DNA of 64,000 nt from [Chlorobium] sp. 445 (GTDB taxonomy: Bacteria; Bacteroidota; Chlorobiia; Chlorobiales; Thermochlorobacteraceae). A program made the translations under genes and the position numbers. Of this stretch, positions 43,717 to 63,345 are shown in pieces. How positions within the stretch are numbered: the first letter of the stretch is position 1; every line of letters starts with the position of its first letter. The notes beneath the pieces are model-generated. The model was not told the DNA's origin and ran no database searches. It was given only the letters and a program-made list of their open reading frames with translations. The DNA lies in NCBI GenBank assembly GCA_002763895.1, contig NSLH01000003.1:1-64000 (forward strand), read 5' to 3'.

Positions 43717-43789
43717 GAGCATATAGCTCAGTTGGTAGAGCATCTCACTTTTAATGAGAGGGTCGATGGTTCGAGTCCATCTATGCTCA
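43717..43789 (+). tRNA. tRNA-Lys (TTT)
   Basis: A full cloverleaf is readable: the acceptor GAGCATA pairs with TATGCTC; the D-loop is AGTTGGTAGA; the anticodon stem TCTCA/TGAGA encloses CTTTTAA with anticodon TTT; the T-stem is GATGG/CCATC around TTCGAGT; the discriminator is A. The CCA tail is not encoded. Confidence 0.97.
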
Positions 43790-43811
43790 CGCTTCCTCTC
43801 CAAAGGACGGC

Positions 43812-43828
43812 GGCTGCCAGTGGCAGCC
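43812..43828 (+). promoter_or_regulatory. Hairpin between tRNA-Lys and tRNA-Leu
   Basis: GGCTGCC (43812-43818) pairs perfectly with GGCAGCC (43822-43828) around a 3-nt loop, ending 5 bp before tRNA-Leu. No T run follows, so a processing signal is more likely than a terminator. Confidence 0.4.
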
Positions 43829-43833
43829 AAACT

Positions 43834-43915
43834 GCGCGGGTGGCGGAATTGGTAGACGCACTACTTTGAGGTGGTAGCGCCGCGAGGCGTAGGAGTTCAA
43901 ATCTCCTCCCGCGCA
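43834..43915 (+). tRNA. tRNA-Leu (GAG)
   Basis: The acceptor GCGCGGG pairs with CCCGCGC; the D-loop region is AATTGGTAGAC; the anticodon stem CTACT/GGTAG encloses TTGAGGT with anticodon GAG. The long variable arm (GCGCCGCGAGGCGT) is typical of class II tRNAs; the T-arm is GGAGTTCAAATCTCC and the discriminator is A. Confidence 0.95.
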
Positions 43916-63086: not shown

Positions 63087-63154
63087 AGGGAAACTTCTAA
63101 GAAAGGGCATTTTATGAGACTGCAACTGCAAATCTGTCGCACAAAAATAGCAAA

Positions 63155-63312
63155 CAAAAAACAAAACCGCCTGAATTTTCTCGGGAATCGCTGCTGCTGC
63201 CCCAGCGACTCAACCTATCAAAACTCAGGCGGAGACTTAAGCTAACTTTACTGCAAGCATACCCTTGTTGCAAGGGACGAACAACTACAACCATCTGAAC
63301 GCAAGATGCAGC
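63155..63312 (-). ncRNA. Candidate structured small RNA with own promoter and terminator
   Basis: Between miaB and the HU gene, on the minus strand, three hairpins lie in order: CATCT/AGATG (63292-63308), CCCTTG/CAAGGG with a 3-nt loop (63262-63276), and a long terminal structure. The last is a 13-bp stem with one mismatch (63220-63232 with 63167-63179) enclosing TCGCTG/CAGCGA. A TTTTGTTTTTTGTTTG tract follows at 63166-63151. A TATAAA (63320-63325) and a CRP-like palindrome (63330-63345) lie just before. It matches no named RNA that I recognise (not 6S, SRP or tmRNA). Alternatively it is the 5' leader of the HU operon. Confidence 0.45.
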
Positions 63313-63319
63313 GAAAGGT

Positions 63320-63345
63320 TTTATAGGAATGTGATTGTTATCACA
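63320..63345 (-). promoter_or_regulatory. CRP-like operator and -10 element before the candidate RNA
   Basis: TGTGATTGTTATCACA (63330-63345) is a perfect inverted repeat, TGTGA-N6-TCACA, identical to the E. coli CRP half-site consensus. TATAAA on the minus strand lies at 63320-63325. The operator overlaps where the -35 element would be, suggesting repression or unusual activation. Confidence 0.5.

What the first reader, a model, noticed from the sequence alone, without database searches (positions are those of the whole stretch)
63155..63345. Candidate regulatory RNA under a CRP-like palindrome
Minus-strand order: palindrome TGTGA-N6-TCACA, TATAAA, then three hairpins and a stem followed by a T-rich tract, between miaB and the HU gene. 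The predicted start (about 63312) leaves about 155 nt. It fits no RNA family I know. The palindrome overlaps the -35 position, so a CRP/FNR-type protein could repress it.
Basis: partly seen in the sequence, partly recalled or inferred. Interest (0 to 1): 0.6.

Follow-up and report, generated by a model that had tools for sequence, protein, structure and literature searches.

The report
New CRP-activated small RNA family
A stretch of DNA between two genes of a hot-spring relative of the green sulfur bacteria probably makes a small RNA, not in the RNA family library searched, that looks to be switched on by a cAMP-type regulator and ends in a hairpin whose nine-base tip has hardly changed across its relatives; what the RNA acts on is unknown.

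Summary
The minus strand holds TGTGATAACAATCACA (63345-63330) and, downstream, one long two-part hairpin (63232-63167) followed by a U tract, between miaB and an HU-type gene. The hairpin recurs in 10 of 98 genomes of the order (16 copies, three tandem triplets): Thermochlorobacteriaceae, Chloroherpetonaceae and one other Chlorobiales lineage, but no Chlorobiaceae searched. No Rfam 15 family matches. Ten of 25 pairs show changes on both sides, and every copy keeps a 9-base loop [GA][GAT]GCAGCAG. In several genomes the neighbouring genes show it to be its own transcription unit.

The repression reading is not supported. Relatives keep the box with a -10-like hexamer 21 bases downstream (63308-63303; start near 63296). 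Protein genes with the same box have their -10 at that offset in 8 of 8 cases: the class II activator position (-41.5). A CRP protein with an E. coli-type recognition helix and adenylate cyclases are present; in the two Chlorobiaceae tested they are absent or only weakly matched.

Best explanation: a cAMP-CRP-activated small RNA of about 140 nt working through its conserved 3' hairpin, in bacteria without Hfq. Transcription was not measured and the partner is unknown. A new family of a known kind.

The parts
63330..63345 (-). CRP-type palindrome TGTGATAACAATCACA, inferred activator site centred at -41.5
   Evidence: Present upstream of the RNA in G000-G007 and G012, not in G010; motif enriched 61 to 4 over its reversed control in 11 genomes; 0 of 2000 shuffles reach the score in G000.
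63303..63308 (-). -10-like hexamer CATCTT, 21 bases after the box
   Evidence: Same offset in G001 (CATCTT), G002 (CATTTT), G003 (CATCTT), G004/G006 (TATTAT); A..T at this offset in 8 of 8 protein-gene promoters with the box.
63153..63296 (-). Inferred small RNA, about 140 nt, start near 63296 and end in the U tract
   Evidence: Start inferred from the promoter geometry, end from the terminator; fold z = -2.88. Not measured.
63234..63296 (-). 5' linker of the RNA, variable in length and sequence among relatives
   Evidence: 25-95 nt between inferred start and hairpin, not conserved beyond the genus.
63167..63232 (-). Conserved bipartite hairpin: outer terminator stem, purine-rich internal loop (GAUA/GAGA), UU bulge, apical stem
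   Evidence: 16 copies in 10 genomes; 10 of 25 pairs with changes on both sides, 97.2% of cells paired; 13-sequence MAFFT alignment agrees.
63194..63202 (-). Apical 9-nt loop GGGCAGCAG, GCAGCAG invariant in all copies
   Evidence: Alignment of 16 copies and folds: kept on apical stems that differ in sequence and length.
63153..63166 (-). U tract of the intrinsic terminator
   Evidence: T-rich tail after the stem in all single copies and in copy 3 of each array; absent or weak after copies 1 and after G007 copy 2.
63142..63149 (-). TATTTTTG, candidate separate promoter element (TAnnTTTG) of the HU gene
   Evidence: TATCTTTG at the same place in G001 and G002; the TAnnTTTG consensus is general knowledge of Bacteroidota promoters.

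Best explanation
This is an intergenic small RNA gene with its own promoter and terminator. A CRP/GlxR-type protein, presumably with cAMP, binds the palindrome at -41.5 and activates transcription from about 63296 (class II arrangement); transcription ends at the U tract. The 5' part of the RNA is not conserved. The working part is the 3' hairpin, which is terminator and functional domain in one and presents an invariant GCAGCAG loop and a purine-rich internal loop to a partner in trans. The partner is most likely a set of mRNAs paired through the loop, or else an RNA-binding protein, so that gene expression is adjusted when cAMP rises in cells that have no Hfq. Shown by comparison: the structure, the independent unit, the box and its spacing. 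Inferred: that it is transcribed, that this particular CRP activates it, and that it acts in trans. Unknown: the target.
For: Covarying structure in 16 copies, above all 500 shuffles and all slid controls. Own unit: in G012 the upstream gene is divergent, and in G006 the array lies between a divergent and a convergent gene. Box present in 9 of 10 genomes, strongly in most. Box to -10 spacing of 21 shared with 8 of 8 protein promoters. Motif enriched genome-wide and recurrent before orthologous genes. CRP protein with FGEMSVLDGATRSADA and SRETISR; CRP and class III cyclases strong in the RNA-bearing lineages and lacking or weak in the two Chlorobiaceae tested. No Hfq.
Against: No transcript data. 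G010 has the hairpin but no box, and the box in G002 is weak. The RNA's -10 hexamers match TATAAT poorly (mean 2.9 of 6), as activator-dependent promoters may. G009 has a CRP protein but no RNA. No conserved target was found for the loop. A cAMP requirement was not tested.
Confidence: 0.66

Rival explanations
1. A protein-titrating or protein-docked RNA: the hairpin binds an RNA-binding protein (for example the RRM protein) through its loop and internal loop, and tandem copies raise the number of binding sites, as repeated hairpins do in CsrB-type RNAs. Activation by CRP would then change that protein's action on its other clients.
For: Both the loop and the internal loop are conserved, not only a pairing stretch. 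Triplets in G004, G006 and G007, with the three G007 copies inside 315 bases and T-rich tails missing or weak after the first two, so one multi-hairpin transcript is possible. RRM proteins are present in all nine genomes tested.
Against: Seven of ten genomes carry a single copy. RRM proteins also occur in lineages without this RNA (G009, G028). No binding data.
Confidence: 0.22
2. A 5' leader or attenuator of the HU gene: the hairpin ends or permits transcription into HU.
For: HU lies directly downstream in G000-G003, G010 and G012.
Against: In G004, G005 and G007 the RNA is not beside HU, and G004, G005 and G009 have HU homologues without the RNA nearby. HU seems to have its own TAnnTTTG element after the terminator in G000-G002.
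Confidence: 0.05
3. Only the transcription terminator of miaB or a repetitive DNA palindrome, with no RNA of its own.
For: It lies downstream of miaB in G000-G003 and folds as a terminator.
Against: A plain terminator would not keep a 9-nt loop, an internal loop and G-U pairs across families. In G006 and G012 the upstream gene is divergent. There is one locus per genome and no match in phage or plasmid collections.
Confidence: 0.04
4. A CRP/FNR-type repressor covers the -35 of a promoter with TATAAA as -10 and start 63312.
For: TATAAA is present in G000 and TATAAT at a similar place in G012.
Against: No such hexamer at that place in G002, G003, G004 or G006, while the 21-nt spacing to a second hexamer is kept and matches the protein-gene promoters.
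Confidence: 0.07
5. A small protein encoded across the hairpin (one frame, DRLSRWGSSSDSRENSGG, is open through most copies).
For: That frame is open through the core in 11 of the 12 copies checked.
Against: No shared start codon, a stop inside the core in G005, compensatory non-synonymous stem changes, and length changes in copies 1 of the arrays.
Confidence: 0.02

Closest known systems
CRP-controlled small RNAs of enterobacteria (CyaR, Spot 42, McaS; Crp-controlled small RNAs of Yersinia, title and abstract of PMC4376681)
   Same: Intergenic, with a CRP-type box, short, ending in an intrinsic terminator (the enterobacterial features are general knowledge).
   Different: No sequence relation found by Rfam scans; no Hfq in this lineage; the conserved part is the terminator hairpin itself.
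Chlorobi-1 RNA (Rfam RF01696, PMC2864571)
   Same: Small structured RNA of the same order, often in tandem copies, ending in a terminator.
   Different: Different sequence and structure (GUGGGGGAC motif), other loci in the same genomes, commonest in Chlorobiaceae, where the present RNA was not found.
FopS/GibS small RNAs and the RRM protein RbpB of Bacteroides (PMC11697453)
   Same: Paralogous small RNAs in Bacteroidota without Hfq, associated with an RRM protein; RRM proteins are present here too.
   Different: FopS works by a seed in its 5' part (PMC11697453); here only the 3' hairpin is conserved. No RRM binding is shown here.
CsrB/RsmY-type protein-titrating RNAs
   Same: Repeated hairpins with an invariant loop motif; in Yersinia CsrB and CsrC are under Crp influence (title of a paper in the reference list of PMC9029176).
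   Different: Loop motif GCAGCAG, not GGA; usually a single copy; no protein partner known.

Membership tests
CRP-activated (class II) small RNA gene | CRP-type palindrome upstream, conserved in relatives | tested here: met
   exception G010, weak in G002.
CRP-activated (class II) small RNA gene | Box centred near -41.5 relative to the start | tested here: met
   Spacing of 21 to a -10-like hexamer, shared with 8 of 8 protein promoters. The start itself is not mapped.
CRP-activated (class II) small RNA gene | A CRP protein able to read TGTGA is present | tested here: met
   cNMP domain plus Crp HTH with SRETISR.
CRP-activated (class II) small RNA gene | Expression depends on cAMP-CRP | not testable with these tools
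   Needs expression data or a reporter.
Independent small RNA (not a leader) | Own promoter and terminator, no obligatory downstream gene | tested here: met
   Divergent or convergent neighbours in G006 and G012; HU not adjacent in G004, G005, G007; U tracts.
Rfam Chlorobi-1 (RF01696) | Match to the Rfam model | tested here: not met
   No match at the locus at any E-value up to 10; Chlorobi-1 lies elsewhere.
Any Rfam 15 family | Score above the gathering threshold | tested here: not met
   permissive searches gave only chance matches.
Hfq-dependent base-pairing small RNA | Hfq in the genome | tested here: not met
   0 of 9 genomes.
CsrB-type titrating RNA | Several hairpins with a conserved loop in one transcript, binding a protein | tested here: inconclusive
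   Triplets in 3 genomes, single copies in 7; whether the triplets are one transcript, and any protein binding, is not known.
RRM (RbpB)-associated small RNA like FopS | Binding to an RRM protein | not testable with these tools
   RRM proteins present; binding unknown.

The most novel reading that the evidence does not exclude
A cAMP-CRP-induced RNA in an Hfq-free lineage whose only conserved part is its own terminator hairpin, used as a modular, multivalent docking site (GCAGCAG loop plus internal loop) for an RNA-binding protein, and amplified to triplets in some species: a regulatory RNA class outside the Hfq and Csr systems.
Probability: 0.22. Interest if true: 0.72.

Novelty: new member of a known kind. 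Interest (0 to 1): 0.5.

Why it matters
No Rfam 15 family matches it, and the literature searches here found no small RNA described for Thermochlorobacter or Chloroherpeton. It would be a small RNA tied to a global regulator in a lineage that lacks Hfq, and would link cAMP signalling, apparently missing from the Chlorobiaceae tested, to RNA control in the other Chlorobiales families. The invariant loop gives a sharp handle for finding its partner. The exact -41.5 spacing also gives a usable promoter rule for reading the CRP regulon of this clade.

Tried and rejected
Repression via TATAAA at 63325-63320: that hexamer is not conserved in most relatives, while the 21-nt spacing is. Known RNA families: none. 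Chlorobi-1 as a relative: different motif. Wider distribution: 395 genomes of the phylum add nothing; a pattern scan of genome and viral contigs gives Chlorobiales matches plus chance hits; phages and plasmids give none. Target search with the complement of the loop (CTGCTGCCCC) in four genomes: matches lie inside genes or in unrelated places; the only orthologous pair is a palindrome beside a transporter gene, on the wrong strand. Coding reading: no consistent start, one internal stop, non-synonymous compensatory changes. HU leader: RNA and HU are separate in several genomes. An antiterminator between the 5' end and the terminator arm was considered; part of that segment lies upstream of the inferred start and it is not kept in G003, so it was dropped.

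Full report
Observation. On the minus strand the palindrome TGTGATAACAATCACA is at 63345-63330, TATAAA at 63325-63320, and a long G+C-rich hairpin at 63232-63167 is followed by a T tract to about 63153. The upstream neighbour is the C-terminal part of a MiaB-family methylthiotransferase and the downstream one an HU/IHF-like protein. The hairpin folds at -36.1 kcal/mol, z = -5.74. It is one bipartite hairpin, not a series of three: an outer terminator stem, a GAUA/GAGA internal loop, a UU bulge, an apical stem and a 9-nt loop.

Distribution. A 221-base nucleotide search found relatives in 10 of 41 genomes, the window's own included. A covariance model found the same 10 genomes among 98 of the order and among 395 of the phylum, with 16 copies. 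They are Thermochlorobacteriaceae, a Chloroherpetonaceae genome and another Chlorobiales genome, named through a pattern scan of titled records. No genome of family f4, which I take to be the Chlorobiaceae, has it, and neither has G009. Three genomes carry three tandem copies. Phage and plasmid collections give nothing. No Rfam 15 family matches. Chlorobi-1, a known RNA of the phylum, lies elsewhere in these genomes and has another sequence motif.

Structure. On the 16 copies 97.2% of the pair cells are standard pairs, against 33-50% when the strands are slid. Ten of 25 pairs change on both sides, and the covariation score exceeds all 500 shuffles. That alignment was fitted to the model, but a plain MAFFT alignment of 13 copies agrees. 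Conserved G-U pairs and the T tract show that the minus strand is the RNA strand. The apical loop keeps GCAGCAG in all copies although the stem below it differs in sequence and, in copies 1 of the arrays, in length.

Independent unit. In G000-G003 the order is miaB, RNA, HU. In G012 the upstream gene is divergent, so the promoter must lie in the gap of about 220 bases that also holds the box. In G006 the array lies between a divergent and a convergent gene. In G004, G005 and G007 HU is not beside it. The 25-95 bases between the inferred start and the hairpin are not conserved. So the RNA is neither an HU leader nor only a miaB terminator, and no reading frame is kept.

Promoter. The box recurs upstream of the RNA with 9-12 of 12 letters in G000-G006, G007 copy 1 and G012. 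In G000, G003 and G012 no shuffle of 2000 reaches the score; G010 has no box and that of G002 is weak. The motif TGTGATNNNNATCAC occurs 61 times (both strands counted) against 4 for the reversed control in 11 genomes. It recurs before a secreted-protein gene in five genomes and before a gamma-carbonic anhydrase gene in three (gene names there are my reading of the sequences). In eight protein promoters the -10 hexamer starts exactly 21 bases after the 16-base box: A and T at hexamer positions 2 and 6 in 8 of 8, against 0-1 at the other offsets. At the RNA promoters the same offset is the best of 32 tested. This puts the box centre at -41.5, the class II activator position known from E. coli CRP and FNR (general knowledge). 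The start is then near 63296, an A.

Regulator. G000 encodes a 230-residue CRP-family protein (G000:C33:20651) with a cyclic-nucleotide domain, the segment FGEMSVLDGATRSADA and the helix SRETISR. Its nearest solved relatives are actinobacterial CRP/FNR proteins, with E. coli CRP also matched (that 3r6s and 4byy are GlxR is general knowledge). Strong matches occur in the RNA-bearing lineages and in G009, only weak ones in two f4 genomes. Class III cyclases follow the same split.

Function. The lineage has no Hfq and one or two RRM proteins per genome. With only the terminator hairpin conserved, the working site is probably in it. Two readings remain: pairing of GCAGCAG with mRNAs, or docking of a protein. 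A search for conserved loop complements found no target, so the partner is unknown.

Verdict. It is a new family of a known kind. The unusual points are the conserved terminator loop, the tandem triplets and the absence of Hfq.

Noticed in passing
G000 sites C6:55004, C27:31733, C38:5218, C1:149134 (L167-L170) and relatives L171-L184: A CRP regulon for this clade: the same box recurs before a secreted-protein gene next to ftsX or groEL, a gamma-carbonic anhydrase gene, a D-alanyl-D-alanine carboxypeptidase-like gene and others, with the -10 exactly 21 bases after the box in the best cases.
   Followed up: partly
L036-L045 (G001, G002, G003, G005, G006, G009, G010, G012): Chlorobi-1-like RNAs (RF01696), mostly below Rfam's gathering score, in the non-Chlorobiaceae families; sequences look genuine and would extend that family.
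   Followed up: partly
G028, G022 against the f1-f3 genomes: Class III adenylate cyclases are abundant in f1-f3 and absent in two f4 (Chlorobiaceae) genomes, with only weak CRP matches there: a possible lineage-wide loss of cAMP signalling.
   Followed up: partly
L064, L074, L087: Tandem triplets of the hairpin; copies 1 have a longer apical stem and no U tract, so the arrays may give one multi-hairpin RNA.
   Followed up: partly
window 63142-63149 (-): TAnnTTTG element directly after the terminator, kept in G001 and G002, likely the separate promoter of the HU gene.
   Followed up: no
window 43717-43915 (+): Two adjacent tRNA genes, the only Rfam matches in the window.
   Followed up: no
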